The notes beneath the pieces are model-generated. The model was not told the DNA's origin. It ran no database searches and saw nothing but the letters and a program-made list of their open reading frames with translations. DNA of 63,060 nt from contig JAFVSW010000037.1 of the NCBI GenBank assembly GCA_017503545.1, positions 1 through 63,060 on the forward strand, written 5' to 3'. Shown piece after piece: positions 16,095-39,124 of the stretch (its first letter is position 1; every line of letters begins with the position of its first letter). The DNA comes from Lentisphaeria bacterium. GTDB lineage: Bacteria > Verrucomicrobiota > Lentisphaeria > Victivallales > UBA1829. The position numbers were made by a program, and so were the translations under genes.

Positions 16095-19000
16095 TTATTT
16101 CACCGGGACCAGAATCAGACGGAAACCAAGATCGTTCAACCGGGCATTGGGCTTGCGGCTTTCCCGATCCGCAGAACGGCAATACCAAGTATAATCGGAC
16201 CAACTGCCGCCACGAATCATACGGCGTGTCTCATCATTGGAATCCTTATTTGTCCGGCTGAATTCCGCCAGCGTACTATTGGAAGCCTCGGACCAATCAT
16301 CCAGACACCATTCCCACACATTGCCGCTCATATCATACAAGCCGAGTTCATTGGCACGTTTTTCTCCCACTGAGTGAAGTTCTGCAGAAGAATTGCTGTC
16401 GCACCACCCGACATCATTCAGATTATTACTGCCGCTGTATTTATAACCGCGCCCTTTCTTACCGCCGCGTGCAGCAAATTCCCATTGTGTTTCCGTCGGC
16501 AGAGTAAAACGCCAGCCATTGGGGGCATATTGATTCATTTTCTCGCAGAAATTCATGACATCCCCCCAGGAAACATTCGTCACAGGGTAATTACCGTCTT
16601 TTGCTTTTTCAGTGGGAGGGACTTTGATCCCCATTACAGCACACCATTGCGCATTGGTCACTTCATATTTTCCGATATAGAAAGGTTTCGTCAGAGTTTT
16701 ATCATGTTCCACTTCATTTTCATAATTTTCACCGTCTTTTTTACTCATGGTAAAACTGCCCGGTTCCACTTTAACCATTTCCAATTTTGTATCACGCGGG
16801 AGGTTGATCAAACCATTGAACACGATTTCCTTCAAAGGCAGCGTCCATTTTTTAAGGCCGCGCCAATTACAGGAGAATGCAATTTCCCCGGCATATTTGG
16901 CATTGGCTGTCTGATAGGATACCGAGATTTTATAACGGCTGTTTTTCGTAAAGCCGTGAATGATTTTTCTGGTATCCAGATCGGTATCGCCGATTTTTGC
17001 TTGAGCGGGGACCCGTTTTCCATCCACCATTGCAAGGATTTCCAGAGTTGGCTTCAAATTAAGTTCCGCTTCGTTTCTCAACCGTTTCGCTTCTTTGCAA
17101 TTTTGGTCAACCGCGAGCGCAGCAACAGCATGATCAAGCACCGCAAGCCAGCTGCCGATTTGTTTCGCCTGTCTTGCCAATGCCAATTCCTTATGCAGTT
17201 TTTCCAGACGGATCTGTTTATCTGCCAGAATAATCAATTCGTTCGCTTTTCCGGCATCAAAGGGGCGCAACTGACCGGCAAGTTGTTTTAATTGTCCCCA
17301 TTGTTTATGTTTTTTTGCCAGTTCAATAGAACGGTTGAGATCATCCAGAGCCAATTTCTGAGCCTCAGTATGTGCTTTTTTGTATCCGGCAAGAGCGAGG
17401 CGGAAAGATTTTTCTGCGGATTTGAAATCGCCCTGTTCCTTCGCTTTCCGCCCCATTTTTTCCTGCGCAAGAGCATCCTTATATGTCACATAAGCAAGTC
17501 TGGCACCATTAAAACGATCCGCCTGTTTTTTCGGTTCAACCAATTGTTTTTCCAACAGCAATACCTGTTCCCGTAACGGGGCATTGACAAGCAGCCAATC
17601 AGCAGCCTTTTCTGCGGCAAGGAATGCAGTATGCGCGGCAATGATGTCATTTTTTTTCATTGCATTTTCCCCGGCATTATACTGATCGCGCAACGTATCC
17701 AGGTGTTTACCGAACATCTGACCGCGGTCATATTTAGCAAAATCAATATCCTGTTTTTTTCTGAAAATACGCAATTGCAAGCGATAAACATTCTGCATCA
17801 ACATTGCCATTTTGCGTTCATCGGACAACAATTTTTCCGCAGAGAGGCGATCATTTTCGGCTCTTTTTGCATTTTCCTCGGCTGCGAGTTTTGCAAGACG
17901 TTCTTTTTCAGCTTTTTCTGCGGCAAGTTTCAAAAGACGTTCTTTTTCAGCTTTTTCCGCAGCAAGTTTTGCAAGACGTTCTTGTTCAGCTTTCTTCGCA
18001 CGTTCTTCCGCAGCAAGTTTTGCAAGACGTTCTTGTTCGGTTTTCTTCGCATGTTCTTCCGCAGCAAGTTTCGCAAGATATTCTTTTTCAAGCTGAATCA
18101 AACGGTCTTGTGCATTTTTCTTCAGCTTCTGCTGCTGTCCATACCAATAATATCCGGCACCTCCACCAAGCAAAAGGATCAGGAGTGCAGCAATGCTGAT
18201 TTTTTTCAATCCGATTTTCTGCGGAACAATATAATTCCAGAATGTTTTCCCCTCCAGAGCGGTAACAAAATCAGCACAATTCCGATACCGTGTATCCGGT
18301 TCTTTGCTCAACGCATGGAAAATGGCAGACTGAATGTGCGCCGGAACATTGGGGATATCCGCAGGAACATCATTCAGTACAGCATACCGGAGAACGGTCG
18401 AATCCGCACTTTCAAAAGGCAATCCACCGGCATACATTTCGTATGCGATAACAGCCAAAGCATATTGATCCGCCCGTGCGCCGAGGGCACGTCCCCGCCA
18501 TTGTTCCGGTGCCATATAGGTACGGGTACCGGGAACAAAAGAATCTGTAGATTCTGTGCGTGACAACTGGGTATCCGGCGGAGCCGCAAGTCCGAAATCA
18601 AGGATTTTGATATTTCCATTACGATCGATCATGATATTATCCGGCTTGACATCGCGGTGAATAATTTTCTGACTGTGTATGTAATCCAATCCGGCGGCAA
18701 TTTGTTTGACAACCGCCAGAATTTCCTCATGGGTCACCCCCTCTTTCTTGCGTTTCCGTTTCAACCAATGACGCAATACCTCTCCGGGGCAATATTCCAT
18801 AATAAGGTAATAACTGTTGTTTTCGCTGTCAAATTCCAGATTTTTGTAACCGACCACATTCGGATGTTGTAAATTATGAACTAGCTGGAAATTTTCTTTA
18901 AAGTTTTCCATTTCCACCGGATCGCTGCAAATTTCCAGCGGAAGTGCTTTCAACGCTACCTGGATTTCAGATGTTTTATCAAAACATTTGTAAACGACTC

Positions 19001-22000
19001 CCATGCCGCCATGCCCCAAGACAGAGAGGACATAATAACGGTCCATAATCAATTCACCCGGCTGAAATCCCGGTGTTACTTTTCTGTGTCTGCGCGGACC
19101 GGTGGAATCGGAATGAATAACCGATTCGATCCCCGTATGCGGCAGTGCAGTGTCCGGCTCCTCCTGCTCCCGGGCATTTGAAGAAGCAGCAGTTGTCTCG
19201 CGAATCACAGTATCCTGATTTTCATTGCGGATAAGCACGAGACGGAGACCGATATAATCTTCGCAACAATCCTCTTTATGACAGTAAAACATTTCCGAGG
19301 TCTGGGGCATCAATTCGGCATCCCGCCAACTGCCGCCGCGAATATTTTTACCGTAATCACCATATTCTGCAAAATCATCCAGACACCATTCCCAGACATT
19401 ACCGTTCATATCATACAGTCCGAGTTCATTGGGTAATTTCTGCCCGACTTCATGCGTTGTCTCGCCGGCATTCTCATAAACCCATGCAACAGTTTCCAAA
19501 TCATCACTGCCGCTGAACCTGTAATTGCAGTCAAATTTTCCGCCGCGAGCAGCAAAATCCCATTGTATTGCAGTCGGGAGTGTAAAATACCAACCGGCAG
19601 GAGCGTAAGGAGCCATTTTTTTACAAAATTCCATCGCATCATACCAGGAAAGACATTCCACCGGGAACTTTGCCGCTTTATGATTAACGGAGGGAATGGG
19701 AACCGTCCCCATTACAGCACTCCACTGCTCATTCGTAACTTCATATTTACCAATAAAAAATTCATCATACAGGGTTTTGGTACATTCGCCCACATCGACC
19801 GTTTCCGTTTCGTCTTCCGACATTCTCATCATACGGACAGCAAAACTGCCGGGCTCGACTTTCACCATTTCAAAATCCGTACCGCCGGGAAGATTAATCT
19901 TTAAATGATTCTCGTCACTGGGTACTTTTACGCGTAAAACAATACGATAATTCAAAATAAGCCGCAATAACAGGAACAAAACAACAAAAGCCAGACAGCC
20001 CACAATGTACTGTGTATAAGCCGGATATTTATTACATCCCCACAAACCTGCAGGACAAACAAACATGCACATACAAATCAAACAGGCGAACAAAGTTTTG
20101 ATCTTATTCCGGGCAATCCTGATCACTGCCTCACATTTCAATGTCAAAGCATCAAAATTTTTCTCATCGTTCTTCAATACGGCATCTGATAATTTCAAAA
20201 CATTGCGCCAGTTCCGGCTCGTTCCGGCTTCCCGGGCATGTAATAAATCGCCGGCGATTTGAGCAAGATATACGGCAGCTTCCTCTTTCAAAGATTTCAC
20301 ATCTGCATTTGCGGCATCCATGCTGGAAGCGACTCTTGCATGTTTCAATACTTCATGCCAATTCTTTGCTGCTTTTGCTTCCCGTGCGAAAGATAATTCC
20401 TGTTCCAGTAAAGCCAGAACGTTTTCCGCTTCCTGCTTCAAAGCCAGTGCATTTTCATTGGCGGCATCAATATCCAGGGCATAAGCGGCATTTTCCAATA
20501 CATCGTTCCAATTTTTTGCAGTTTTTGCTTCGGAAGCCTGTAACAGAAAATGTTCCAATTCAGCCAAATGCATTTCGGCTTCCTGTTTCAGATTCAAGGC
20601 TTCCACATTCGCCTGATCTTCCACAGCTGCCAATTTTGCATGTTCCAAAACATCGCGCCATTTTTTTGCAGTTTGCGCCTCATAAGCCACCGCTAATTCC
20701 TGTGCAAGTTTCAACAAATGCGCGTCTGCTTCCTGCTTCAAAGCCAGTGCGTCTGCATGGGAAGAAATAATCTGCAATGCGTCATTGGCATATTTCAATA
20801 CATCATGCCAGTTTCCGGCAGTTTTTGCTTCGGAAGCCTGTTGAACTTTCATGGCAAGATCTGCCAGATGCGCCTCTGCATTCTGTTTCAAACGTTGAGC
20901 CGCGGTATTAGCCGGATCAATATTCCATGCAGATTCGGCATGTTTCAACACATCATACCACGCGGATATTGATTCCGCTTCATTAGCCCGTGCCAACTCC
21001 TGCGCCAACTGTCCAAGCGCAGTTTCCGCTTCCCGCTTAAAAGTCTGGGCATCAGTATTTACCCGGTCGATTTTCAAAGCGGAATTGGCATATTTCAACA
21101 TATGTTGCCATTTCCGGTCTTTTTTTGCATCACGAGCCTGCGCCAGAACTTCTGCGAGTTGCGCAAGTTGTTTTTCTGCTTTTGTTTTTAATGACCGGGC
21201 ATCGGCATCCGCTTCATCAATCGCCAATGCCGCATTTGCATATTTCAATACATCATGCCAGTTTTCGGCAGTTTCCGCTTTATGAGCAGAGGATAAATCC
21301 TGTGCAAACTGCGCCAGTGTGTTCTCCGCCTCCTGTTTTAAAGTCAAGGCTTCGGTATTTGTTTTATCGATCCGGGATGCAGCTCCCGCATGGGATAACA
21401 CATCCTTCCAGCGTTTTGTTTTCTTTGCCTCACGTGCCTGAACCAATGTCTGTTCCAACTGCGCCAAATGCTCTGCGGCATCGTCTTTGAGTTTCTGCGC
21501 TTCGGTATTTGTTCCGGCGATGCGTAACGCAGTCTCCCCATGCTCCAATACGGCACGCCAATTTGTTTCTTTTTTTGCGGACCGCGCCAACGCTAATTCC
21601 TGCGCAATTTGTGCGAGGCAGTCTTCTGCTTCCTTTTTCAGATTATGCGCTTCGACATTCGTCGGATCCATCGTCAACGCATTTTCCGCATGGGTCAACA
21701 CTTCACGCCAATTCTTTACATTCTGCGCTTCATGAGCCTGCGCCAATTTCTGATCCAGTTTTATCTGTTGATCGGCAAACGTTTCCCATTCCGCAGCTTT
21801 TATCTGATCAAGCGGGGCAATTTTTCCGGCAATATCCTTTACATTATACCATTGTTTATTGTTTTTGGCATTTTCTGCAGATTGAATCAGATTACTCAGG
21901 GTCACATTCCGCGCTTCTTCACCGGCGCTGCTGTAACCGGCACCTGCGGTCTGCAAGAGGGTTAAAGCTTCAGAGAATTTTCCGGATTCATAATTTTGCA

Positions 22001-23375
22001 AGGCTTTTTTTGCTAATTCCACCGCCTTTTGATAAACTGCAGCAGCCAATTTCTGTCCGGAAAATTTATCCGCTTCCACTTTACGGATTTCAATATCCAA
22101 CTGCAAGGTCTGGAATTGTTCACGCAAGGGAATATTCTCAATGATCCACTTGGCTTCTTGTTCCGCTTTCCGGTAAAACGCATTGATATTCCGGTGGTCA
22201 TCCCGCACCCAGGCACGCTCCGCCAGTTTCAAATTTTTATCAAAAGTATCAAGATGGATCCCGAAAGTCTGCCCCCGGTCAAGATTTGCAAAATCGAATT
22301 TCCTGATTTGCGTTTCAAGCTGATCCTGCAAATCATAATTTTCCATACTTAATTCTTCAAGACTCTTTTTGGAAGAAGCACTGCGGCGGAATCTTGTATC
22401 ATACAAATTTGCTGCTGACTTTGAAAATGTTTCCGGACTTTCACCACGCATCGCAGCAACAAAATCACTACAGTTCTCAAAACGGTCCGCCGGCTCCTTG
22501 CTCATGGCACGGAAAATAGCCTCCTGTACATATTGGGGAATACCGGGAATATCATCCGGACTTTCCTCCAGAACAGCCTGTTTCAGAATCGCAGTATCCG
22601 GACTTTCAAACGGCAGTGTTCCGGCAAGCATTTCATAAACCAGCACAGCAAGGGCATATTGATCGGTTTGCGCCGCATTTTGTTTTTTGCAACGCCATTG
22701 TTCCGGAGCCATATAAGGCGCAGTACCGGAAACACCGTGATGCGTCATACTGATTTTGGACATCGTATTATAAATTTGTGCTGCAAGTCCAAAATCAAGG
22801 AGCTTGATCTCTCCTTTGGAATTGATCATGATATTGCCCGGCTTGATATCCCGATGAATCACTTTCTGCTTATGAGCATAATCCAATGCTTTGGCAATTT
22901 GATCCGCAATATCAAGAACGTCTTTCAAGGGCAGTTTGCCCTCTTTGTCGCACATACGACGGCACCAGGCACTGAGATCTTCCCCATTCACATATTCCAT
23001 GATCAGGTAATAATTCCCGTTGCTTAAATCTTTTTCCAGATTGTTGTATGCCGCGACATTCGGGTGATGCAGATTATGAACCAGACGGAAATTCGACATC
23101 ATATCTTTGATTTCCGCATCGCTGCGGCTCAATTCCGGCGGCAGAGCTTTTAATGCAACTTCTATTTTGGCGATCCTGTCAAAACATTTGTAGACAATCC
23201 CCATTCCCCCTGCACCTAAATTATCAAGCACTTCGTAACGGTCGACAATGAGGTCTCCGACAATAAACTTGCCATCCGGTTCACGGTCCCGTTTCCCACG
23301 AACCGTTTTCTCCGGATCCTCATTCGACCATTCCGGGGTCAAATGTTTTAATTTCTCTTTGCTCTGCTCTTCCAT
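16095..23375 (-). CDS. Giant tandem Ser/Thr kinase / SUMF1 membrane protein with 50-residue repeats
   Basis: 2426 residues in one uninterrupted frame. Order: kinase 1 (about 45-320; GAGGMG loop, VALK lysine, HRDIKPGN near 173, DFG near 193); an alpha-helical region (about 340-540); eleven 50-residue repeats (about 542-1090, each centred on a W-x2-VL motif); two membrane spans (about 1098-1118 and 1126-1150); SUMF1-type domain 1 (about 1166-1385); kinase 2 (about 1440-1705; HRDVKPDN near 1572, DFG near 1592); one span (about 1723-1742); a charged coiled coil (about 1748-1860); an alpha-helical region with one 50-residue repeat (near 2075); a beta-rich segment; SUMF1-type domain 2 (about 2195-2426). 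Both kinases keep all catalytic residues. The SUMF1 domains have RGGSW, but copy 2 has RSADR where formylglycine-generating enzymes have a catalytic cysteine. With three spans both kinases can be cytoplasmic and the last SUMF1 domain periplasmic. Substrates are unknown. Confidence 0.9.
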   Translation of the reverse strand: MEEQSKEKLKHLTPEWSNEDPEKTVRGKRDREPDGKFIVGDLIVDRYEVLDNLGAGGMGIVYKCFDRIAKIEVALKALPPELSRSDAEIKDMMSNFRLVHNLHHPNVAAYNNLEKDLSNGNYYLIMEYVNGEDLSAWCRRMCDKEGKLPLKDVLDIADQIAKALDYAHKQKVIHRDIKPGNIMINSKGEIKLLDFGLAAQIYNTMSKISMTHHGVSGTAPYMAPEQWRCKKQNAAQTDQYALAVLVYEMLAGTLPFESPDTAILKQAVLEESPDDIPGIPQYVQEAIFRAMSKEPADRFENCSDFVAAMRGESPETFSKSAANLYDTRFRRSASSKKSLEELSMENYDLQDQLETQIRKFDFANLDRGQTFGIHLDTFDKNLKLAERAWVRDDHRNINAFYRKAEQEAKWIIENIPLREQFQTLQLDIEIRKVEADKFSGQKLAAAVYQKAVELAKKALQNYESGKFSEALTLLQTAGAGYSSAGEEARNVTLSNLIQSAENAKNNKQWYNVKDIAGKIAPLDQIKAAEWETFADQQIKLDQKLAQAHEAQNVKNWREVLTHAENALTMDPTNVEAHNLKKEAEDCLAQIAQELALARSAKKETNWRAVLEHGETALRIAGTNTEAQKLKDDAAEHLAQLEQTLVQAREAKKTKRWKDVLSHAGAASRIDKTNTEALTLKQEAENTLAQFAQDLSSAHKAETAENWHDVLKYANAALAIDEADADARSLKTKAEKQLAQLAEVLAQARDAKKDRKWQHMLKYANSALKIDRVNTDAQTFKREAETALGQLAQELARANEAESISAWYDVLKHAESAWNIDPANTAAQRLKQNAEAHLADLAMKVQQASEAKTAGNWHDVLKYANDALQIISSHADALALKQEADAHLLKLAQELAVAYEAQTAKKWRDVLEHAKLAAVEDQANVEALNLKQEAEMHLAELEHFLLQASEAKTAKNWNDVLENAAYALDIDAANENALALKQEAENVLALLEQELSFAREAKAAKNWHEVLKHARVASSMDAANADVKSLKEEAAVYLAQIAGDLLHAREAGTSRNWRNVLKLSDAVLKNDEKNFDALTLKCEAVIRIARNKIKTLFACLICMCMFVCPAGLWGCNKYPAYTQYIVGCLAFVVLFLLLRLILNYRIVLRVKVPSDENHLKINLPGGTDFEMVKVEPGSFAVRMMRMSEDETETVDVGECTKTLYDEFFIGKYEVTNEQWSAVMGTVPIPSVNHKAAKFPVECLSWYDAMEFCKKMAPYAPAGWYFTLPTAIQWDFAARGGKFDCNYRFSGSDDLETVAWVYENAGETTHEVGQKLPNELGLYDMNGNVWEWCLDDFAEYGDYGKNIRGGSWRDAELMPQTSEMFYCHKEDCCEDYIGLRLVLIRNENQDTVIRETTAASSNAREQEEPDTALPHTGIESVIHSDSTGPRRHRKVTPGFQPGELIMDRYYVLSVLGHGGMGVVYKCFDKTSEIQVALKALPLEICSDPVEMENFKENFQLVHNLQHPNVVGYKNLEFDSENNSYYLIMEYCPGEVLRHWLKRKRKKEGVTHEEILAVVKQIAAGLDYIHSQKIIHRDVKPDNIMIDRNGNIKILDFGLAAPPDTQLSRTESTDSFVPGTRTYMAPEQWRGRALGARADQYALAVIAYEMYAGGLPFESADSTVLRYAVLNDVPADIPNVPAHIQSAIFHALSKEPDTRYRNCADFVTALEGKTFWNYIVPQKIGLKKISIAALLILLLGGGAGYYWYGQQQKLKKNAQDRLIQLEKEYLAKLAAEEHAKKTEQERLAKLAAEERAKKAEQERLAKLAAEKAEKERLLKLAAEKAEKERLAKLAAEENAKRAENDRLSAEKLLSDERKMAMLMQNVYRLQLRIFRKKQDIDFAKYDRGQMFGKHLDTLRDQYNAGENAMKKNDIIAAHTAFLAAEKAADWLLVNAPLREQVLLLEKQLVEPKKQADRFNGARLAYVTYKDALAQEKMGRKAKEQGDFKSAEKSFRLALAGYKKAHTEAQKLALDDLNRSIELAKKHKQWGQLKQLAGQLRPFDAGKANELIILADKQIRLEKLHKELALARQAKQIGSWLAVLDHAVAALAVDQNCKEAKRLRNEAELNLKPTLEILAMVDGKRVPAQAKIGDTDLDTRKIIHGFTKNSRYKISVSYQTANAKYAGEIAFSCNWRGLKKWTLPLKEIVFNGLINLPRDTKLEMVKVEPGSFTMSKKDGENYENEVEHDKTLTKPFYIGKYEVTNAQWCAVMGIKVPPTEKAKDGNYPVTNVSWGDVMNFCEKMNQYAPNGWRFTLPTETQWEFAARGGKKGRGYKYSGSNNLNDVGWCDSNSSAELHSVGEKRANELGLYDMSGNVWEWCLDDWSEASNSTLAEFSRTNKDSNDETRRMIRGGSWSDYTWYCRSADRESRKPNARLNDLGFRLILVPVK
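20107..21752 (-). repeat. Eleven in-frame repeats of 150 bp inside the kinase gene
   Basis: The encoded unit is 50 residues long, with the pattern A-x2-A-x-N-W-x2-VL-x-HA-x2-A-L-x-ID-x-A-N-x-A-x2-LK-x-EA-E. The W-x2-VL/ML anchor occurs every 50 residues from residue 554 to 1053, and the first two units are exactly 50 residues apart. It looks like a TPR-like helical pair plus a third helix. The second half of the protein keeps only one such unit, so the array expanded in the first half. Confidence 0.85.
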
Positions 23376-26917: not shown

Positions 26918-26950
26918 ACAACAACCAAACCAATGAGGAGTATTGTTAAT

Positions 26951-29098
26951 ATGCTGCATTTTTGTTCTGATAAAAACCGTTTTGAAGAAGAATTCCGCAA
27001 CCCCGGGATCCCTGAAAGCGGCATCGCCGCGGATTGTCTCCGGGATGAATTGGCACAATTTCTCAATGGGAAAAATTTTTCTTCTCATTTGGAAGAACAT
27101 TTGGCAGCCTTCACATGGCTTTTGGAAAATTTCCGTATCGGAGTTTCTCCCGATGATCTTTTTGTTACACTGGGATTCTGGGGGAGAAAGCCCATCGAAC
27201 AGATTCTGGGGATCCCACGGCGGAAATATGTTACAGAAAATCTCTGCACCGGAACAAGTGACTTTCGTACGGAATTCGTGCATAACGGATATGGATCTTT
27301 TTTCTGGGATTTCGCGCACAGTGTTCCGGATTGGCAAAAAATACTGGCAAAAGGGTTTCCCGCTTTGACCCATGAAGCGGAGACAGCTTATCAACGGTTC
27401 AAACTTACCCGAAAAAATGATATAACACCACAGCAGGAACAGTTTTTTCATGTCGTAATCCGTGAATATCAGCAGACATTGCGCCTACTTGACCGTATTC
27501 TTATATGGGCGGAAAAAGTCAATTGTCAGCAGGCAACACTGGCGGCATTGCGCTCTCTCCGCCGGGGTGCGCCGCAAAACTTTTATGAAGCGATGCTGTT
27601 GATCTGGCTGTACTATCAACTCTCGGAATACGGGGACTGCATTCAGACGCGTTCATTCGGGAATTTGGACATCATGCTTTATCCTTATTACAAGCGGGAT
27701 CTTGATTCCGGAACCTTTACAAAAGATGATATACGGCAGATCATCCGTAATTTTTATTCCAAAGTTTCCGGGATGAAATACTTTTACGGACACCCGTTTT
27801 ACCTCGGCGGAACATTATCTGACGGCAGTTCCGGCTTCAACGAACTCTCCTCACTTTTCCTGGAAGAATATGGAGACATGGGGATCTATGATCCCAAAAT
27901 CCAAATCAAACTTGCCGCAAATACACCGACCTGTTATATCGACCAGGCTCTTGATCTGATCCGTTCCGGTCGTAACAGCATTGTGTTTGTGGGTGAACCA
28001 TGTATCAACAAAAGTATGCGCCGTCTTGGATACACGCCGGAAGAGGCACGTAACGCAATTATCAAAGGATGTTACGAATACAGTGCGCCAAACGCGGTGG
28101 AAACTGCTCCAATCATTTTCAATATGCCAAACATTCTTATGAAACTGCTCAAAGAAAACAAGGATGCCTCTTCTTTTGATGAACTGTTCAATGCCTGTCT
28201 GTCCGGATTCCGTAAAATCATCGACAACAGTATGGCAGTTGCCAACGACTTTGAAAAATATCTGGATTACGTAAACCCTGCCCCGCTTTTTTCCGGTGTT
28301 TCAGCAACCGCACTGGCACAAGGCGGCGACGGATATGCAAAATGTGCCAGTTACAACAATTCCAACATCTGGTTTTCCGGACCCGCTACCGCCGCAGACA
28401 GCATTATCATGATTAAAAAATATGTCTTTGACCGGAAAGAAATCACGCTGTCCCAATTCCTTTCCATTCTTGAGAAAAACTGGGAAGGTGCGGAACTGCT
28501 CCAAAAGAAAATTTTGAATGATCCGGACCATTTCGGCAACAATCGTCCTTCCGATGTCATTGCAGTTGAATTTATAGAATCTCTGGCAAAACACATCAAC
28601 ACCCGTCCCAACAGCCGCGGTGGAATCTATACCACTGCCCTTCATTCCGCGAACTGGTTTATCCTGTTCGGACGCAACGTAGGGGCTACTCCGGACGGAC
28701 GCAAAGCCGGAGAAGAATTGACGAAAAATATGACACCGAGACAAGGTGGTAATTTTACCGGAGCCCCGGCATTGCTGTCATCGGTATTAAAACTTGACCC
28801 CACGGAATTTGCTGCCGATTTTCCTGTCGATATCATGCTTCATCCTTCTGTAACGGCAGGGGAAGACGGACTTCTTGCCATGCGGGCTCTGCTGATGACT
28901 TATATCAAACAGGGCGGTCACGCCATCCATTTCAATATTTTCAGCAGCAAACTACTCAAAGACGCGCAACTTCATCCAGAACGCTATACCGATCTTCAGG
29001 TGCGGGTCTGCGGTTGGAATGTTCTCTGGAACAATCTTTCCGAAAATGAACAGAATGCTTATATGGCGCAGGCAGAAGCGAACGAAACGGAAGCATAA
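26951..29098 (+). CDS. Glycyl radical enzyme of unknown substrate
   Basis: 715 residues, slightly short for a pyruvate formate-lyase/dehydratase-type enzyme. The active-site loop KGCYEYSAP carries Cys374 in the place of the catalytic cysteine, followed at +2 by the usual glutamate. The C-terminal loop VRVCGWNVLW places Gly688 as the radical site. The residue after it is Trp instead of the near-universal Tyr (normally RVxGYxA). No radical-SAM activating enzyme is encoded in the window, so one must act in trans. ATG 26951 was chosen because GAGGAG lies 10 nt before it. The divergent AraC gene suggests substrate induction. The reaction cannot be told from sequence; a C-C or C-O eliminase of sugar-derived compounds is a guess. 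Confidence 0.85.
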   Translation: MLHFCSDKNRFEEEFRNPGIPESGIAADCLRDELAQFLNGKNFSSHLEEHLAAFTWLLENFRIGVSPDDLFVTLGFWGRKPIEQILGIPRRKYVTENLCTGTSDFRTEFVHNGYGSFFWDFAHSVPDWQKILAKGFPALTHEAETAYQRFKLTRKNDITPQQEQFFHVVIREYQQTLRLLDRILIWAEKVNCQQATLAALRSLRRGAPQNFYEAMLLIWLYYQLSEYGDCIQTRSFGNLDIMLYPYYKRDLDSGTFTKDDIRQIIRNFYSKVSGMKYFYGHPFYLGGTLSDGSSGFNELSSLFLEEYGDMGIYDPKIQIKLAANTPTCYIDQALDLIRSGRNSIVFVGEPCINKSMRRLGYTPEEARNAIIKGCYEYSAPNAVETAPIIFNMPNILMKLLKENKDASSFDELFNACLSGFRKIIDNSMAVANDFEKYLDYVNPAPLFSGVSATALAQGGDGYAKCASYNNSNIWFSGPATAADSIIMIKKYVFDRKEITLSQFLSILEKNWEGAELLQKKILNDPDHFGNNRPSDVIAVEFIESLAKHINTRPNSRGGIYTTALHSANWFILFGRNVGATPDGRKAGEELTKNMTPRQGGNFTGAPALLSSVLKLDPTEFAADFPVDIMLHPSVTAGEDGLLAMRALLMTYIKQGGHAIHFNIFSSKLLKDAQLHPERYTDLQVRVCGWNVLWNNLSENEQNAYMAQAEANETEA

Positions 29099-30737: not shown

Positions 30738-33695
30738 ATGAAAAAGTCCCTTTTACTTTCACTGAGTTTGCTCAGTGTTTTCGCTTTGACTGCAGCTGAT
30801 CAAATGCCCGCTTTGGATTTCGATCCGCCACCGCGGGTCATCAGAATGGATCACAAAAACATCATCACTCTCACCGGAAAAAATGTAGAGATCGTTGTCC
30901 CTGCGGATGCCGGTCTGCCGGCAAAATGGGCAGGAAAAGAATTGCAGTCTTTTCTGAATCAGGTCTTATCGGCAAAGATCCCCGTCCGCACCGCACGGTC
31001 AAAAAATGTTCCGCACGCCATCATCCTCGGCGACAGCGCACTGAGCCGCAAGGCAGGGGTCAGAGTCGATAAACTCGGGCGCGATGCCTTCCTCATAAAG
31101 ACCATCGGCAAAGATATCTATATTGCCGGCCGCGACGACAAGAAAAGCAATACCGAAAAGCTTCTGACCGACCGCCAATGGCGCAAAGAACCCTTTTTGC
31201 ATCTGCGCGGGACCATATTCGGCACCTACGATTTTCTGGAACGTTTTGCCGATATCCGGTTCTACTTCTACGGTCCCATCGGTACGATCGTGCCGAAAAA
31301 AGCATCTTTGAAGATCCCGAAACTGGATATCTTCGACCGTCCGGACCAGATCGTGCGCAATTACAAAACATGCCGTTACAAACAGGAAGACTGGTACACC
31401 GGCAGCAAAAATCCCGTTCCGGAAGGCAGGATATCCTCGTTGCGCTGGCGTTCACAGACCCGGAGTATCCCCAATAGTCATGGTATCGCACATCTCGGTT
31501 ATGTTTCCCGTTTCGGCAAATCCAATCCGGAATATTTTGCATTGAAAAAAGACGGGACACGGTACAATACCTGGGATGATGATTTTCCCGGCCATATATG
31601 TCTTTCCAATCCCGGTTTCCGCAATGAATTGTTCAAGGATATGGTCTCCGGTCTGAGTGGTGAACCGCCGACAAAGCGCGGTGTCAGATTCTCCTACAAG
31701 GGGTATAAGAAAGGTTTTTCCGACTGGATGCCAAGCGTATTGCTTTACCCCGGATTTTTCAATATTCATCTGCAGGATGGATCACAGCCCTGTCAATGCA
31801 AAGATTGTCAGAAATTGCTGACTCCGTATAAAAATGGTCAGCCCCGCGGCGAACTGATCTGGGAATTCACTGCCGACATGGCTAACCGTATCAAGAAAGC
31901 CGGATTCAAGGCTTATGTCACACAGATGGCATATCATTTCTACAGAGATGTACCGAAGGTCAAACTGCCGGATAACGTTCTTGTTCAGGTCGCGACACCC
32001 GGCCCCTGGGCAAGCAGATCTCCCTCGATGGAAAAGATCGATATGGACCTGCTCCGCGGCTGGAACAAAAAACTGGGCAAAAAAGTCTGGTTGTGGAATT
32101 ATATTCTCAACGGCAATAATCCGAAATCCAATTACACCTCTCCCGGCGCACCTCAATATACGCCGAAAGCCGCCGGATATTATTATCAGAAACGCGCAAA
32201 ATTGATCTCCGGCGCATTCCTCTCCAACATGTCCCGCGGCAGCGATTATATTCATGACGTAATGACGCTGTACATGGCAATGAAGATCATGTGGAACTCC
32301 TCCCTGAATGTGGAAAAACTCATGCAGGAATATTACGACCGCATGTTCCTTGCCGCATCCCCCGAAATGAAGAAATTCTTCGAAGAATTGGAAGAGATCT
32401 GGGTCACAAAAATGCGTGGTCAATACATGGAAACCGCACTCGGTCCGGTCTGGATCAGACCGACACAATACGAAATGTGGACCGCGATCTATTCCCCTGC
32501 CCGTATTGCGGCCTGGGAAAAATTGTTCGCCCGTGCAGAAAAGAAAGTTGCAAAGCAGAAAGACGCTCTTACCAGAGTCCGCTTCATGAAAAAACATTTT
32601 CTTGATCATATCAGGAAATATGCCGACACATTCCAGGCGAAAGATCAACGTTCCCGGAATCTCAGAGCGTATGCTGCACCGGACGGCAAAGTAAGTAAGA
32701 AATATTATCTGCCCCGTCTCCACAATCCGGTCTCGAACATCAGACCTTATGTTACGATCCGGAATACCGGCGATGCCCTGGTATTCGATTTCCGCGTCGA
32801 TGACAAGAAGATGAATGAAATTGTTTATACAAAAAATATCTCTTCAGGCAGAGAATTCTTTGCTAATGCAACATTTGAAGTCTTCCTGAACCCCAACGGC
32901 GACCGCAAGACGATCTATCAAGTCGCAGTCACTCCAAGCGGTGTAAACCGGATCTATCATCACCCCGGCGTGCAGGTAAAAAAGGATCCCCGGATCCAGA
33001 CCAGTGCAAAAGTGGCAAAAGATCATTGGACAGCCACGATCCGTGTGCCCTTCTCTGCTCTGCCCGGCATGAAAAAGGATGGCTTCCCCGTCAATTTCAC
33101 TTACAACAGTCAGCGGAAAAATGCAAAGAGCAACAGCGAATTGTATTCCTGGAGTCCGTTCCTGGTGAAAGGATTCCTCGGTTTTGACAGTGTCGGCACA
33201 CTCTATCTGGATAAACTCCCGGAAGCAAATCTGGTCGAGGACTTCGATCTGCAGGAACTCGTACGCAAGGGAAGAAGAGCAAGCAAACGCTGGACCATGA
33301 CAGAAAAGAATGGCGGCAATGTCAGTTTCGCGACCGACAGTTATATTTCCGGCGGACAAAGTCTGAAATGTACCGGAACAAATGCAAAATCCAATACCCA
33401 GATCTCTCATGCACTGGCCGGCAAATTGAAACCCAATACCCGTTACAGCTTCAGCTTTTATGTGCGGTATGACATGGATAACAATGCCATTGCCCGTGCA
33501 CGTGCCTGGGCCGGACGGAATTATTTCTTCCCCCGCAAAGGCATGAAAGGCAAGCGGGATTGGACACTTGTCACAGGTGAATTCAAGACAGGTGATCTGA
33601 CGGAACATAACATCAAACATGCGCACCTCGGTTTCGGCTTGAGCGGGAAAGGTACGTTCTATATCGATCACATCGTCTTGCAGGAAATCAAATAA
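30738..33695 (+). CDS. Secreted DUF4838 protein with C-terminal carbohydrate-binding-like domains
   Basis: 985 residues with a signal peptide (MKKSLLLSLSLLSVFALTAA). An N-terminal GH67-N-like region (about 45-190) is followed by the DUF4838 core (about 195-620), which contains the C-x-C-x2-C element CQCKDC near 355. Next comes a CBM9-like beta-sandwich (about 650-830; ATFEVFLNPNGDRKT) and a final CBM4_9-like jelly roll (about 840-985). DUF4838 proteins resemble glycoside hydrolases in architecture, but their activity is not established. It is exported and probably handles complex glycans. It is cotranscribed with the HAD and prepilin-like genes. Confidence 0.82.
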   Translation: MKKSLLLSLSLLSVFALTAADQMPALDFDPPPRVIRMDHKNIITLTGKNVEIVVPADAGLPAKWAGKELQSFLNQVLSAKIPVRTARSKNVPHAIILGDSALSRKAGVRVDKLGRDAFLIKTIGKDIYIAGRDDKKSNTEKLLTDRQWRKEPFLHLRGTIFGTYDFLERFADIRFYFYGPIGTIVPKKASLKIPKLDIFDRPDQIVRNYKTCRYKQEDWYTGSKNPVPEGRISSLRWRSQTRSIPNSHGIAHLGYVSRFGKSNPEYFALKKDGTRYNTWDDDFPGHICLSNPGFRNELFKDMVSGLSGEPPTKRGVRFSYKGYKKGFSDWMPSVLLYPGFFNIHLQDGSQPCQCKDCQKLLTPYKNGQPRGELIWEFTADMANRIKKAGFKAYVTQMAYHFYRDVPKVKLPDNVLVQVATPGPWASRSPSMEKIDMDLLRGWNKKLGKKVWLWNYILNGNNPKSNYTSPGAPQYTPKAAGYYYQKRAKLISGAFLSNMSRGSDYIHDVMTLYMAMKIMWNSSLNVEKLMQEYYDRMFLAASPEMKKFFEELEEIWVTKMRGQYMETALGPVWIRPTQYEMWTAIYSPARIAAWEKLFARAEKKVAKQKDALTRVRFMKKHFLDHIRKYADTFQAKDQRSRNLRAYAAPDGKVSKKYYLPRLHNPVSNIRPYVTIRNTGDALVFDFRVDDKKMNEIVYTKNISSGREFFANATFEVFLNPNGDRKTIYQVAVTPSGVNRIYHHPGVQVKKDPRIQTSAKVAKDHWTATIRVPFSALPGMKKDGFPVNFTYNSQRKNAKSNSELYSWSPFLVKGFLGFDSVGTLYLDKLPEANLVEDFDLQELVRKGRRASKRWTMTEKNGGNVSFATDSYISGGQSLKCTGTNAKSNTQISHALAGKLKPNTRYSFSFYVRYDMDNNAIARARAWAGRNYFFPRKGMKGKRDWTLVTGEFKTGDLTEHNIKHAHLGFGLSGKGTFYIDHIVLQEIK

Positions 33696-33706
33696 AAATT
33701 GCTGAT

Positions 33707-33943
33707 ATGGAAATCAACTGCATCATGATCACAGCCCAGGTCATCGGGTTGGCAGCAATGATCGTAACCGTTCTCTCTCTGCAATGCAGAAGCAATCAGA
33801 ATTTTTACCGGTGTCAAACTGCCGGTGGTATATTATTCATGCTCAATTTTCTGCTGCTTGGCGCATGGAGTGGAGCGCTGATGAACGTTTACAGCATTCT
33901 CCGTCCGGAATTGCTCCGGCGTCGCCATACGGCTATGCCGTGA
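33707..33943 (+). pseudogene. Truncated YgjV-like membrane protein
   Basis: 78 residues that match the first 70 or so residues of the intact 181-residue protein at 42353 very closely (QCRSNQNF, CQTAGG, LLLGAWSGA, ILRPEL are shared). Similarity stops abruptly after ILRPELLRR. The following DNA, with CTTCGCCAAGACTACGGCGG at 33969-33988, is unrelated to the rest of the gene and looks like inserted repeat sequence. About 100 residues (the later membrane spans) are missing. It is probably non-functional. It keeps the same position behind a DUF4838 gene as its intact relative. Confidence 0.8.
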
Positions 33944-34291
33944 CAAGGTGTGGAAAATAACCATCCACCTTCGCCAAGACTACGGCGGACAAGCCGCAAA
34001 CGCTCCGGTTTCAGATCCCAACAAGAGTTTTCAGGCATTTTTGAAAACTTTTGAAATTGCCTCATCAAATCGAACGAAAATATTACGGAGCAAAATACTG
34101 TTTATGAAAGTGTTCTGCTCCGTATTTCATTTAGCGTAAAAAATTTTTATAATGATTTCTACGGTTCGTTACAGTACAGTCTGACATTAAAAAAACAGCA
34201 TTTTTTCTTCGTATATTCCGTTTTTCTTTGCCAAAACAGCTGAAATATAACATTTTTTTTATTTTTTTCACATTTTGATATCTTTTTTTTC
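33944..34291. other. Gene-free stretch with repeat-like insert and weak stem-loop
   Basis: No gene is supported. The first part (about 33944-34020) has higher GC than its surroundings and contains the CTTCGCCAAGACTACGGCGG segment that interrupts the YgjV-like gene. TACGGAGCA (34084-34092) pairs with TGCTCCGTA (34116-34124), a possible weak terminator without a clean T-run. The remainder is AT-rich and leads into promoter B. Confidence 0.5.
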
Positions 34292-34349
34292 TTGACAAAT
34301 CATAGTAGGACAACTATATTATCCCAGAGTGTTGCATATTAATACAACA
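34292..34349 (+). promoter_or_regulatory. Promoter and operator B (TGTTG-N10-CAACA)
   Basis: TTGACA (34292-34297), a 17-nt spacer, TATATT (34315-34320) and the operator TGTTGCATATTAATACAACA (34330-34349), one base different from operator A. Similarity to site A continues downstream (CAGTTA, AAAA, AAGGAT, GCGCAA) to where the HAD start codon would be, but here no HAD gene follows. A 17-codon reading frame at 34361-34414 has no ribosome site. Confidence 0.75.
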
Positions 34350-34442
34350 GTTAAAAAATAATGAAGGATATGGAAAGCGCAAAAATAAAGAGCAATTCCG
34401 GTGAGGATAAATAAACCTATTGTTAAAGCAGGAGATAGAACA

Positions 34443-35132
34443 ATGCCAAAGAAATTTCGTACTTTCACGCTGATCGAACTTCTGGTTGTAATTGCCATCA
34501 TTGCCATTTTAGCGGCAATGCTTTTGCCATCGCTGAATAAGGTCAAAGCGGTTTCCGTCAAAGCAACGTGTATGAGTAATCTGAAACAAATCGGTCTGGC
34601 TTGTCACGGGTATGCCGCCGATTTCAAGGATTATATATTTCCGCAGGCAAGTGAGAATAAAGTAGGCTCTAATAGCAATTTAGGGATTCACTGGTATAAA
34701 GAAAACAGTCACGTGTGGAGTTATCTGAAAAGCCGGAAACTCTCCTTCTGTAATGCCTTCAGACCGGAACACTCCCTCAGTTATTCGCTTCCGAACCGGG
34801 GTACTTATACCATTGCACGGGCATTTTCTATGGGATATGGAAACTTTAGTGGACGGGGAACAAAAATACAGCAAATCAAACAACCATCATGGAAATTTTT
34901 ACTTGTGGAACACAGATATGCCCCGGACGGTTTTGATTACACACATTTGAACAAGGATGACAGCAAAACCTATATACGTTTTCTGCACAACAACACAACC
35001 AATATTCTTGTCATCGACGGGCATGTACCAACAGCAAAAAAATGGCAGATACTTGATAGTGCGAACAACCGACTCTATGCGCAATTTCTTTGGCTGGACG
35101 CCGGAACCAAACCACCTGCGTTCCAACCGTAA
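34443..35132 (+). CDS. Prepilin-like protein 2 (H-X9-DG type)
   Basis: 229 residues. The leader MPKKFRT is followed by [20 protein letters not shown]; the residue before the Phe is Thr instead of Gly. The C-terminal box [17 protein letters not shown] fits H-X9-DG exactly. The pilin stalk helix is followed by a beta-rich head. The start at 34443 has GGAG about 8 nt upstream; a longer in-frame version is not supported. It is the first gene after promoter B and lies 116 nt before the CBM9/DUF4091 gene. Likely exported to the inner membrane as a pseudopilin-like component. Confidence 0.88.
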
Positions 35133-35248
35133 AAACAAGTCGGAAATACTGAAAAAAGGGTATTACGGGATCATTGTGTCCTGAAACCGGAAATTAAGGA
35201 ATAAAAACACTCACAATTTTATAAAAAACAGAACAGGAAAGAAAAAAA

Positions 35249-38200
35249 ATGAAAAAGCTGTTAAGGAACACAATGCTTATGCTGCCGGTAACCATGATCG
35301 CAGCAGAAGCACAACCAACCCCAACAGAACCGACAACATTCCGTATCCCACGGATCGAAACAGCATCCACCGGTTATAAACTGGATGGGAAACTGACGGA
35401 TAAAGTGTGGGAAAAAGCCGCCATGATCCAGAAATTCGATCATGTCTCCTTTAACGGAAAAATGTCCAATAAACCGGTAAAGAGTAAAACAACAGTAAAA
35501 ATGTTTTATGATGTGGATGCCCTTTATTTCGGCTTCACATGCTATGAAGAAAATATCAAAAAAGTTGTGCCGGGTCTTCCCGCAGGACAAACAACAGACG
35601 TCCCCATCGGCAGCAGCGATGACTGTCTGGAAATGATGATCTTCCTCCCCGGATCCGACAAAACGTATTATCACATGCGGATCGTTCCCTCCGGTGCAAA
35701 AGAAGATGCGCGCAACACACTTCTCGAACCGGGAAAATTTCTGCGTGACAGTTCCTGGAATGGAAATTGGGATGTAAAAACAAAAATCGATGAAAAGGCA
35801 AAATGCTGGACTGCGGAAGTTAAGATTCCGTTCAAAATCTTTGCAAATGCAGAAGCCGGATTTTTCTCCACCACTCCCGCAAAAGGGGATAAAATCCGGA
35901 TCAATCTTGGCAGAGTCTCTTCTCCGGCTGCCGAAACGACCACCTGGCAAGTCGGACCCCGTGGATTCCACAGTCTGTTTGCAAACTGTATTTACAACGG
36001 AATGCCTTTTGGCGACATCCAATTGATCAAGCCGCAAAATCAGCGTATCATCAATGGAAAAAATCAATATACCGTAACTCTCTGCAATAAGGCATACCGA
36101 CCGGGAAATCTCCGTGTGACGGCAACCTTGGTGGAAGATGAAACCGATCCGGTAAAACGTGCCGATGCACGGCGGAAACGCCATTGGATCAAACCGATGC
36201 GCTACACCTCTCTCCTGAATCAGACTTACGCCTTGAAAGCTGGTGAGAAAAAAGATATTACGGTGGAATTCGACATCAAAGAAGGCGGCGTCAAAACAAT
36301 CAATTTCAATGTTGACTGGCTGCGGATGAAACATCATATCTGCCACAGCACTCTGGTGGATAATCTGTACGATATTGAAAGCGGAATCAAAAAGAATTCC
36401 GATAAAAACACGCTGCTGAACAACAAAATCAAAGAAGCTGCCGGGAAAGGGATCAAGACTCCGGCAAATATCACCTCTCTGATCAAGCAGACCAATGATC
36501 TTTTGAAGAAAGCACAGGACAAAACAGTTTCTCCCTTTGAAAAGACTTCCGCCTTACAGAGTGCAGAAAAGAATCTGGAAAAAATAGAGTTCTACATTTC
36601 TACGGTCATTTCACCAAGCATCTGGAATATCAAAAACGGCAGAAAAAATGCGTCTTTCGCCGTTGGGATCGCTTCCGCCGGAGAAAAAGTATTCCGGGAT
36701 CTGCCGTTCAAAGGCACATTCGGCAACAGGATTTCCATAAGCCTTGCCGCAAATGAATATGAATCCGCACAAATGGTATTCTTTTATCTTACAAAGAAAA
36801 GAAACAATATCAAAGTCTCCGTTTCCGATCTGAAAAACGAAAAAGGCGATATCATCAAAGCCGATCAATTCAAAATCCACAGAGTCGGTTTTGTCAATAT
36901 CGGGGACAGCGGTCATCACACCCACGTAGGCTATTGGCCGGATGTACTTTACCCCGAATCCAATATTCAGCCGCCGGTCAAGGGCGATCTGCAATCCGTC
37001 ATGCTGACTTTGAAAACAGACAAAGATCAGAAAGCAGGCAATTATACCGGAACAGTAACATTTGATAACGGCAAAGAAAAACAATCACTGGAACTGGCAG
37101 TCCGTGTATATCCCTTTGCGCTGCCCGATAAAAAAAGCCTCGGCATGAATATCTGGTTCCACGGGATTCGCGTCCATTGGTTCTATAACCAACTTACTTT
37201 ATCCCACAAATTATTTGATCAAATTATGTCGGTACAGGGTGCATATCACTTTGCGACAGGGCTCCGCGGCTACATAAGCAAATACATTCGTGTCAGAGAA
37301 ATTGCAAAAGGAAAATATAAATTTGACTTTTCACTTCTGGAACCGTACATGGAAATTTCCATGAAACACAATGCCAATGTATTGAATCTGGATATACTCG
37401 GTCCGGCATTATTCAAAAAATCGCCAAAGATCCTCATCGACAAAAACGGAAAATTGCAGAAATTCTCCCCGGCAGATCCGGAAGCGATGGAAGATCAATA
37501 TTTCCAGGAAGCTGTTGCATGGTACAAGGAAAAAGGATATTTGAAATATGCGGTCATTCAGATCAGCGACGAACCCTGGAGCGAGAAAGCACAGGAATAT
37601 ATCCGTAAACGGTCCGCTCATTTGCGTAAACTTGTCAGCAAGGAAGATATGCCCCGGATCATTACAGCAGGTACTGTCCGCAACCGTATGAATTTGAGTG
37701 GTGCCATCAATATCTGGTGTCCCCAGTTCCCCCAGTTCAATCCTGCCGATTATAAAAACATGAAGAAAGACGAATCCTTGTTCTTCTATCAGTGTCTTTA
37801 CAAACCGGAATTCCCCATGTACATGATCGACCGTCCGGGGATCGAACCGCGTATCACCGGCACGATTTGCTGGAAATTCAATGCAAAAGGTTTCCTGTAC
37901 TGGACCTCCGAACAATGGATTGCCGGCGGTGCTGGTGAACCGGCAAACAGAGCAAAAATGAAAAACCGCTGGGTTCATGAAGAATGGGGATTCCCCTTCC
38001 GCGATAATCCCGGTGACGGATGTTTCATTTACCCGACAAAAGATGGTGTGATCCCCTCACTCCGCGCACAATACATGCGTGACGGGGTGGAAGATTACGA
38101 ATATCTTGCCGTCCTGCAAAAAACATTGGGACAGGCACTCAAGAAAGGGAAAATGACGGCTCAGCTTCGCAGAGAAACCGATGCGATCCTGAAAGTTCCG

Positions 38201-38311
38201 GATCACATTGTAAAAGCGGTCAATGATTGGACGAAATCGGAATCTGCCCTGCAGGATTTCCGTAACAAAGTGGCAGAACAGATCATCAAATTGCAAAAAC
38301 GCCTCAAATAA
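35249..38311 (+). CDS. Secreted CBM9-like / DUF4091 (GH123-like) protein
   Basis: 1020 residues with a signal peptide (about 1-22). Residues about 30-260 form a CBM9-like carbohydrate-binding domain (LDGKLTDKVWEKA, ALYFGFTCYE). A helical linker and beta domains follow (about 270-620). The C-terminal half is DUF4091/GH123-like: KYAVIQISDEPW near 770 has the Asp-Glu pair that is catalytic in GH123 beta-N-acetylgalactosaminidases, and GDGCFIYPTKDGVIPSLRAQYMRDGVEDYEYL near 930 is the DUF4091 signature. It probably removes amino sugars from host or mucin-type glycans outside the cell (inference). A terminator follows the gene. Confidence 0.82.
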   Translation: MKKLLRNTMLMLPVTMIAAEAQPTPTEPTTFRIPRIETASTGYKLDGKLTDKVWEKAAMIQKFDHVSFNGKMSNKPVKSKTTVKMFYDVDALYFGFTCYEENIKKVVPGLPAGQTTDVPIGSSDDCLEMMIFLPGSDKTYYHMRIVPSGAKEDARNTLLEPGKFLRDSSWNGNWDVKTKIDEKAKCWTAEVKIPFKIFANAEAGFFSTTPAKGDKIRINLGRVSSPAAETTTWQVGPRGFHSLFANCIYNGMPFGDIQLIKPQNQRIINGKNQYTVTLCNKAYRPGNLRVTATLVEDETDPVKRADARRKRHWIKPMRYTSLLNQTYALKAGEKKDITVEFDIKEGGVKTINFNVDWLRMKHHICHSTLVDNLYDIESGIKKNSDKNTLLNNKIKEAAGKGIKTPANITSLIKQTNDLLKKAQDKTVSPFEKTSALQSAEKNLEKIEFYISTVISPSIWNIKNGRKNASFAVGIASAGEKVFRDLPFKGTFGNRISISLAANEYESAQMVFFYLTKKRNNIKVSVSDLKNEKGDIIKADQFKIHRVGFVNIGDSGHHTHVGYWPDVLYPESNIQPPVKGDLQSVMLTLKTDKDQKAGNYTGTVTFDNGKEKQSLELAVRVYPFALPDKKSLGMNIWFHGIRVHWFYNQLTLSHKLFDQIMSVQGAYHFATGLRGYISKYIRVREIAKGKYKFDFSLLEPYMEISMKHNANVLNLDILGPALFKKSPKILIDKNGKLQKFSPADPEAMEDQYFQEAVAWYKEKGYLKYAVIQISDEPWSEKAQEYIRKRSAHLRKLVSKEDMPRIITAGTVRNRMNLSGAINIWCPQFPQFNPADYKNMKKDESLFFYQCLYKPEFPMYMIDRPGIEPRITGTICWKFNAKGFLYWTSEQWIAGGAGEPANRAKMKNRWVHEEWGFPFRDNPGDGCFIYPTKDGVIPSLRAQYMRDGVEDYEYLAVLQKTLGQALKKGKMTAQLRRETDAILKVPDHIVKAVNDWTKSESALQDFRNKVAEQIIKLQKRLK

Positions 38312-38336
38312 ATGATTCGAGACTGTTAAATCGTCG

Positions 38337-38382
38337 ATCCGGTAAAATGTCAACACAACACAGCATTTTACCGGATTTTTTT
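38337..38382 (+). terminator. Terminator after the CBM9/DUF4091 gene
   Basis: ATCCGGTAAAATG (38337-38349) pairs with CATTTTACCGGAT (38364-38376), a 13-bp perfect stem with a 14-nt loop, followed by T residues to 38382. Confidence 0.9.
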
Positions 38383-38403
38383 GCGGTATTCCGGCATTTG
38401 ACC

Positions 38404-38448
38404 TTGCTTTTCGGTCAAGAGATGATATAGTATTGCAATCGAACAATA
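38404..38448 (+). promoter_or_regulatory. Promoter with TATTG-N8-CAATA operator
   Basis: TTGCTT (38404-38409), a 16-nt spacer and TATAGT (38426-38431) run into the inverted repeat TATTG (38431-38435)-N8-CAATA (38444-38448). The same TATTG-N8-CAATA arrangement lies in the promoter of the GntR/LacI regulator at 47205-48302, so that protein is a candidate regulator of this unit. Confidence 0.6.
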
Positions 38449-38473
38449 AACCAACATAAAAACAGGTTATGAA

Positions 38474-39124
38474 ATGAACAACAAAAATCGCAAGTTCACA
38501 CTCATCGAATTGCTGGTTGTTATTGCAATTATCGCCATCATCGCGGCTATGCTGCTCCCCGCATTGGGCAAGGTCAAGGAAACTTCTAAAACCGCTTCCT
38601 GTCTCTCCAATCTCAAACAGAGTATGACGTATATCGGGATGTATACTGATTCGTATAACAATATGCTGTATACTGACAGTACCTGGGCGGGTGCAATCAC
38701 CAAAGCCGGGCTTGCCAAACAAGATCAATATCAAGCCATGCGCTGCCCGGGACTTCCTGTACCCCAGGCACATATCAACAGTCCGTACTATACATTCGGG
38801 ATCCGCATGGTTTCCGGCACCTCAAAAACCCTTCACCATCTGGTCAAAATCAAACAGCCAGGCAAATACATTCTGCTTGCAGACTCCATCAACAGCAATC
38901 CGGATAAAATGAATCAGACCAACATTATCTGCGGCAGATTGCTTTATGACAACGGTTCGCACTCCGATATTTTCGGTGCTTATGCGCAAAAAATCCATTT
39001 CCGGCATAATCTCCGGGCAAATATCAGTTTTGCGGATGGACATGCCAGCGCACATCAACCAAAAGATTCTGACATCAAACTCCGTATACAATGTCCAAAA
39101 CCCTATCCTACAACACTTTATTGA
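38474..39124 (+). CDS. Prepilin-like protein 3 (H-X9-DG type)
   Basis: 216 residues. The leader MNNKNRK precedes [20 protein letters not shown] (Lys instead of Gly before Phe). The C-terminal [13 protein letters not shown] is a perfect H-X9-DG box. It is a close tandem paralogue of the next gene: long identical runs occur in the helix, in [16 protein letters not shown], in [10 protein letters not shown] and in the last 15 residues. It is separated from that gene by 147 nt holding a second promoter. An AGGT site lies before the ATG. Unlike the other four, it is not directly followed by a secreted enzyme gene. Confidence 0.88.

What the first reader, a model, noticed from the sequence alone, without database searches (positions are those of the whole stretch)
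16095..23375. One 2426-residue protein carrying two full kinase-SUMF1 modules
The ORF holds kinase - helical region - repeats - two spans - SUMF1, then again kinase - span - coiled coil - helical region - SUMF1. The two halves are related throughout: the helical regions share DRGQTFGIHLDT versus DRGQMFGKHLDT, and both contain IxLREQ and the 50-residue unit. So a whole module was duplicated and kept in one frame, with both kinase active sites intact. Hanks kinases joined to one SUMF1 domain occur in planctomycetes and relatives; a tandem double with different membrane topology in each half is unusual. With three spans, kinases 1 and 2 and SUMF1 domain 1 can be cytoplasmic and only SUMF1 domain 2 outside. 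This suggests an outside-sensing, inside-dimerising signalling protein.
Basis: partly seen in the sequence, partly recalled or inferred. Interest (0 to 1): 0.8.

Follow-up and report, generated by a model that had tools for sequence, protein, structure and literature searches.

The report
Double receptor kinase with two sensors
A gut-type Lentisphaeria bacterium encodes one very long membrane protein made of two copies of a common bacterial "sensor plus protein kinase" unit joined end to end; single units are ordinary in its relatives, the joined pair was found nowhere else, and its front sensor looks worn down.

Summary
The ORF is real: 2426 codons on the minus strand, no stop, two Pkinase and two FGE-sulfatase (SUMF1-like) domains, both kinases with intact motifs. 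The halves are homologous (kinases 53%, helical regions 36%). Half 2 (K2–TM–coiled coil–helical H2–small beta domain B–S2) has the standard order of a family of Ser/Thr kinases found as single-module proteins in this genome and in relatives. Half 1 differs: no span after K1, 11 head-to-tail 50-residue TPR-like units, a two-span hairpin, no B domain, and a degenerate S1 (47/60 family-conserved residues; S2 keeps 58/60) that has lost the CRSAxR motif. The halves are not each other's closest relatives by identity, and some relatives carry such genes in tandem. So a fusion of two diverged neighbouring paralogues fits better than fresh duplication of one module, although trees do not settle it. Among hits examined from several hundred genomes of the phylum, only this frame holds two kinases. 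The "SUMF1" domains resemble the C-type-lectin protein TvpA and lack the Y-C-x-R-Y-R formylglycine-enzyme motif: ligand-binding sensors, not sulfatase activators. Likely mechanism (inferred): S2 senses outside, TM3 transmits, K2 and tethered K1 phosphorylate in cis, the solenoid recruits partners. A new variant of a known kind, from one MAG.

The parts
16095..23375 (-). Whole ORF, 2426 aa (P0001), ATG start at 23375, stop at 16097-16095
22437..23294 (-). K1: Hanks-type kinase domain, residues 28-313; motifs GAGGMG, VALK, HRDIKPGN, DFG, APE intact
21588..22376 (-). H1: helical region, residues 334-596, 36% identical to H2; no span between K1 and H1
20085..21734 (-). R: 11 head-to-tail 50-residue two-helix units (residues 548-1097, the first being the last unit of H1), mean pairwise identity 43%; TPR-like solenoid in the model
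19953..20093 (-). Two hydrophobic spans, residues 1095-1113 and 1123-1141 (hairpin; positive residues on both outer flanks)
19221..19898 (-). S1: FGE-sulfatase/C-type-lectin-like domain, residues 1160-1385, degenerate (47 of 60 conserved positions; CRSAxR lost), predicted cytoplasmic
19095..19220 (-). Linker between modules (residues 1386-1427), no in-frame ATG; one GTG with AGGA only 4 nt upstream
18237..19094 (-). K2: Hanks-type kinase domain, residues 1428-1713; motifs GHGGMG, VALK, HRDVKPDN, DFG, APE intact; activation loop diverged
18159..18215 (-). TM3, residues about 1721-1739, directly after K2 as in the single-module paralogues
17826..18143 (-). Charged A/E/K-rich coiled-coil-like stretch, residues 1745-1850 (read from the sequence; no coiled-coil predictor was run)
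17019..17825 (-). H2: helical region, residues 1851-2119, family-wide domain
16815..17054 (-). B: about 80-residue beta domain ('PTLEI.A.VDG..VPA...'), residues 2108-2187; PEGA/transthyretin-like by appearance only
16098..16817 (-). S2: FGE-sulfatase/C-type-lectin-like domain, residues 2187-2426, intact, predicted outside

Best explanation
This is a membrane-bound Hanks-type Ser/Thr receptor kinase in which two members of one paralogous family are joined in a single polypeptide. Shown by sequence: the two-module anatomy, the standard single-module order of half 2, the altered half 1 and the degenerate S1. Inferred: (1) it arose when two diverged, neighbouring kinase-SUMF1 genes became one frame; (2) S2, a C-type-lectin-fold domain, binds a ligand outside the inner membrane and signals through B, H2, the coiled coil and TM3; (3) ligand-driven clustering activates K2, and K1, tethered on the same chain and the same side of the membrane, is phosphorylated by or phosphorylates K2 (built-in relay or cis-dimer); (4) the 11-unit TPR-like array recruits cytoplasmic partners; (5) S1, predicted to be folded back into the cytoplasm, no longer binds the original ligand and is a relic or a protein-contact surface.
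For: Two kinase and two FGE-sulfatase domains. Four single-kinase members in the same genome (688, 985, 1347, 1666 aa), three of them in the order K-TM-H-B-S(1-3) as in half 2, the 688-aa one K-S without a span. The same order in a second family of the order. K1 closer to paralogues (up to 65%) than to K2 (54.7%). H2-B-S2 48-54% identical to own paralogues, H1 against H2 37%. H1+H2 clade rejected, p 0.042. Adjacent single-module genes in relatives: L131 (same frame, stop, then the next gene), L132 (overlapping ends), L063 (16-nt gap), L139 (30-nt gap). TvpA is the closest solved structure to S2 and S1. TPR-like solenoid. Periplasmic SUMF1 in single-span kinases is reported for the PVC superphylum (PMC11032199).
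Against: No ortholog of the fused protein was found, so conservation, the usual proof of function, is missing. The kinase and SUMF1 trees do not exclude a K1+K2 or S1+S2 duplication (p 0.26 and 0.67; 0.17). Topology rests on hydropathy and charge alone. Ligand, substrates, phosphorylation direction and dimerisation are untested. The structure model of half 1 is of moderate confidence (mean pLDDT 71).
Confidence: 0.55

Rival explanations
1. In-place duplication: one kinase-helical-SUMF1 module was duplicated within the gene and the copies diverged.
For: The halves are homologous in the same order; the kinase tree does not exclude a K1+K2 clade (p 0.26, and 0.67 with a slightly better likelihood when they are held together), nor does the SUMF1 tree (p 0.17).
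Against: Each half is more similar to other family members than to the other half; H1+H2 clade rejected at p 0.042; half 2 has the family's TM and B positions, half 1 has neither.
Confidence: 0.3
2. Assembly or base-calling artefact: two adjacent genes wrongly joined in this MAG.
For: A fragmented MAG (353 contigs, 5.6% contamination); relatives have such genes as adjacent separate ORFs; no second genome shows the fusion.
Against: No long exact repeat near the junction is shared with other contigs (best matches 66-73% identity, otherwise short); GC is even across the junction; the linker has no ATG and no well-spaced ribosome site before K2 (AGGA 4 nt before a GTG, against 6-12 nt at genes of this window), so K2 would not make a plausible separate gene.
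Confidence: 0.12
3. The SUMF1 domains are formylglycine-generating enzymes that activate sulfatases under kinase control.
For: Pfam family name; FGE structures are among the sequence matches of S2.
Against: The FGE stretch Y-C-x-R-Y-R-x-A-A-R is not present: S2 has Y-C-R-S-A-D-R, S1 has lost the segment; the nearest structure is the C-type-lectin protein TvpA.
Confidence: 0.03
4. Both SUMF1 domains are outside; one of the two hairpin spans is not a span.
For: In a relative (L110) a single span sits just before SUMF1, with kinase and middle region inside.
Against: Both hydrophobic stretches are strong (2.09 and 2.73), and an odd number would put K2 outside, where there is no ATP; positive residues flank the hairpin on both outer sides.
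Confidence: 0.06

Closest known systems
Single-span PVC-superphylum Ser/Thr kinases with a periplasmic SUMF1/FGE-sulfatase domain (PMC11032199)
   Same: Cytoplasmic Hanks kinase, one span, SUMF1-like domain outside: matches half 2 and its single-module paralogues
   Different: Here two kinases and two SUMF1-like domains lie in one chain; half 1 has an internal TPR-like array, a span hairpin and a predicted cytoplasmic, degenerate SUMF1
Treponema denticola TvpA (2Y3C), C-type-lectin protein diversified by a retroelement
   Same: Closest solved relative of S1 and S2 by sequence and of the H2-B-S2 model by fold; same spacing between the Cys and the Arg near the C-terminus
   Different: No reverse transcriptase was found in this genome; paralogous SUMF1 genes differ by about 30% in DNA rather than at adenines of one template
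TPR/WD40-repeat Ser/Thr kinases of Planctomycetota (PMC11032199)
   Same: Kinase joined to a tandem repeat array
   Different: There the repeats are mostly periplasmic; here the array precedes the first span and is predicted cytoplasmic, with 50-residue units that Pfam TPR models do not recognise

Membership tests
Hanks-type (eukaryotic-like) Ser/Thr kinase | Glycine loop, VAxK lysine, HRDxKxxN, DFG and APE motifs | tested here: met
   Both domains carry all five; Pfam Pkinase E 1e-101
FGE-sulfatase (SUMF1-like) domain family, PF03781 | Profile match above the curated cut-off | tested here: met
   S2 165 bits, S1 107 bits against a cut-off of 23.3
Formylglycine-generating enzyme | Catalytic segment Y-C-x-R-Y-R-x-A-A-R with the copper-binding Cys | tested here: not met
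   S2 has Y-C-R-S-A-D-R; S1 lost the segment
DGR target (variable) protein | Reverse transcriptase and template repeat with adenine-specific differences | tested here: not met
   No RVT_1 match in the genome; only coding paralogues at 69-73% DNA identity, or short conserved stretches, match S2. MAG about 96% complete
PVC single-module kinase-SUMF1 receptor | One kinase, one span, SUMF1 domain(s) outside | tested here: not met
   Half 2 alone meets it by sequence and hydropathy; the whole protein has two kinases and three predicted spans
PVC single-module kinase-SUMF1 receptor | Ligand-dependent kinase activation | not testable with these tools
   Needs biochemistry
TPR repeat proteins | Two-helix solenoid of 34-residue units, Pfam TPR match | tested here: inconclusive
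   Two-helix units and TPR superhelices as fold matches, but 50-residue period and Pfam TPR only at E 0.34

The most novel reading that the evidence does not exclude
A bacterial receptor with a built-in two-kinase relay: an outside lectin-like sensor (S2) and a repurposed inside one (S1) act on two kinases of one chain, so that one polypeptide integrates outside and inside signals, analogous to dual-kinase-domain proteins of eukaryotes.
Probability: 0.15. Interest if true: 0.6.

Novelty: new variant of a known kind. Interest (0 to 1): 0.38.

Why it matters
Single kinase-SUMF1 receptors are abundant in the PVC superphylum, but what the SUMF1-like domain senses and how the kinases are switched is not established. 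A natural fusion that ties two kinases together, and leaves one sensor degenerate on the predicted inner side, is a ready test case: it predicts that two such kinases work as a pair and that only the outside sensor is under constraint. It also shows how receptor kinases may grow from tandem gene arrays. As one gene in one MAG, its general weight is limited.

Tried and rejected
Diversity-generating retroelement: the S domains resemble TvpA and differ most in the segment after RGGSW, so a reverse transcriptase was sought; none in the own genome, and the hits in G118 and G129 showed no template-like repeat in the stretch held. Internal start for K2: one GTG with AGGA 4 nt upstream, outside the spacing seen at genes of the window; rejected as unlikely. 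A second double module: G181 contig 12 first looked like one (frame reported as 1469 aa), but a stop codon after position 6319 separates two genes. Sulfatase activation: motif absent. Kinase tree for dating the duplication: unresolved. Literature searches for double Hanks kinases and for Chlamydia Pkn1 with FGE returned nothing usable.

Full report
Observation. The ORF at 16095-23375 is read on the minus strand from an ATG at 23375 to a stop at 16097-16095 and gives 2426 residues without a stop. Pfam finds the kinase domain twice and the FGE-sulfatase (SUMF1-like) domain twice. BLAST of the first 1390 residues against the rest aligns the kinases (53% over 286 aa, E 6e-96), the helical regions (36% over 266 aa, E 8e-39) and the SUMF1 region (E 7e-65) in the same order. 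Both kinases have every catalytic motif. Hydropathy gives spans at 1095-1113, 1123-1141 and about 1721-1739. This is far beyond chance.

Anatomy. Half 2 reads K2 (1428-1713), TM3, an A/E/K-rich coiled-coil-like stretch, H2 (1851-2119), a beta domain B of about 80 residues (2108-2187), S2 (2187-2426). Half 1 reads K1 (28-313), H1 (334-596), eleven units of exactly 50 residues (548-1097), a hairpin of two spans, S1 (1160-1385). The repeat unit is the last unit of H1, amplified; half 2 has one copy. AlphaFold gives helix pairs of about 14 and 29 residues for most units, and the fold matches are TPR superhelices, although with low TM-scores for the whole model. H2 is a confident helical region; B is a beta domain whose only, weak, fold match is transthyretin-like (E 0.06); S2 matches TvpA at E 1.4e-12.

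S1 is worn. Of 60 positions conserved in at least 85% of the other SUMF1 domains of the family, S2 keeps 58 and S1 keeps 47; S1 has lost R-S-A-x-R near its end and sits on a long branch (1.69 changes per column, median 0.49). One other domain scores lower than S1, only because the extracted piece is truncated at its end (G021_C166). K1 and K2 keep 82/86 and 77/86 of the kinase positions.

Family. The same genome (a MAG of 4.06 Mb, 353 contigs, 95.8% complete, 5.6% contaminated) has four further single-kinase members of the close family: 1347 aa (K-TM-H-B-S-B-S), 985 aa (K-TM-H-B-S), 1666 aa (K-TM-H-B-S-B-S-B-S) and 688 aa (K-S, no span found). The order as held here (137 genomes) has close kinases or SUMF1 domains (E <= 1e-50 to the S1-K2 segment) in 14 genomes and the H domain in 11, in two families. 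Searches of 198 genomes of the class and 388 drawn from the phylum added more single-kinase proteins. These searches score only a few candidates per genome, so a missed second double cannot be excluded. Among all frames loaded from those hits, only P0001 holds two full kinase domains. Nearest named relatives are MAGs of Victivallales and other Lentisphaerae/Verrucomicrobia from rumen and other sources; the placement of this genome in Victivallales is inferred from that alone.

Origin. K1 is 59-65% identical to the single-module kinases and 54.7% to K2; K2 is up to 60.6% identical to a paralogue. H2-B-S2 is 48-54% identical to the same stretch of own paralogues, H1 is 37% identical to H2. A clade of H1+H2 is rejected at p 0.042, H2 grouping with own paralogues (87/93); K1+K2 (p 0.26; 0.67 with more rows) and S1+S2 (p 0.17) are not rejected. 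In relatives, single-module genes lie next to each other: L131 (same frame, about 230 nt apart after a stop), L132 (ends overlap), L063 (16-nt gap), L139 (30-nt gap). Joining of two diverged neighbours is therefore the simplest origin; an old internal duplication remains possible.

Artefact check. No long exact match near the junction is shared with another contig, GC is even, and the linker offers no ATG and only a badly spaced GTG for K2. The gene lies next to fatty-acid genes of the fabD/fabG/fabF type, with no second kinase gene among the neighbours scanned. A wrong join cannot be ruled out without reads.

Function. [quoted passage not shown] Half 2 fits this. The formylglycine-enzyme motif is absent and TvpA is the closest structure, so the domain is best read as a C-type-lectin-fold binding domain. 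The rest is inference: S2 as outside sensor, K2 switched through TM3, K1 tethered beside it as partner or substrate, the TPR-like array as a docking platform, S1 as a cytoplasmic relic or contact surface. No ligand, substrate or phosphate transfer was tested.

Verdict. Observation confirmed; interpretation partly supported; a new variant (double fusion) of a known receptor-kinase kind, so far one gene in one MAG.

Noticed in passing
L061:279-7436: A 2386-residue frame with eight consecutive SUMF1-like domains and no kinase found, in a Verrucomicrobia MAG.
   Followed up: no
L131:3368-7774; L132:4749-9243; L063:7764-17043; L139:3893-17703: Tandem arrays of separate kinase-SUMF1 or kinase-helical genes, with gaps of a few to about 1800 nt or slight overlap.
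   Followed up: partly
L054:2068-5457: A close kinase of the same family joined to many Sel1-like repeats instead of a SUMF1 domain, in relative G021, which has at least ten such kinases.
   Followed up: no
L095:745-2619: A kinase of the family followed by seven predicted spans (relative G076).
   Followed up: no
L040, L041, L042, L043 SUMF1 C-termini: The paralogous SUMF1 domains differ most between RGGSW and GFRLALVP, near the stretch that the retroelement diversifies in TvpA, although no reverse transcriptase was found in this genome.
   Followed up: partly
L126, L127, L128: Reverse-transcriptase genes in relatives G129 (two) and G118 (one); no template-like repeat seen in the short stretches held.
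   Followed up: partly
L044:438-6299: Three more distant kinase genes in a row in the same genome (contig 253).
   Followed up: no
window 26933-29098: Glycyl-radical enzyme of the pyruvate-formate-lyase type, near DUF4838 and GH123 glycoside-hydrolase-type genes (30738-42343).
   Followed up: no
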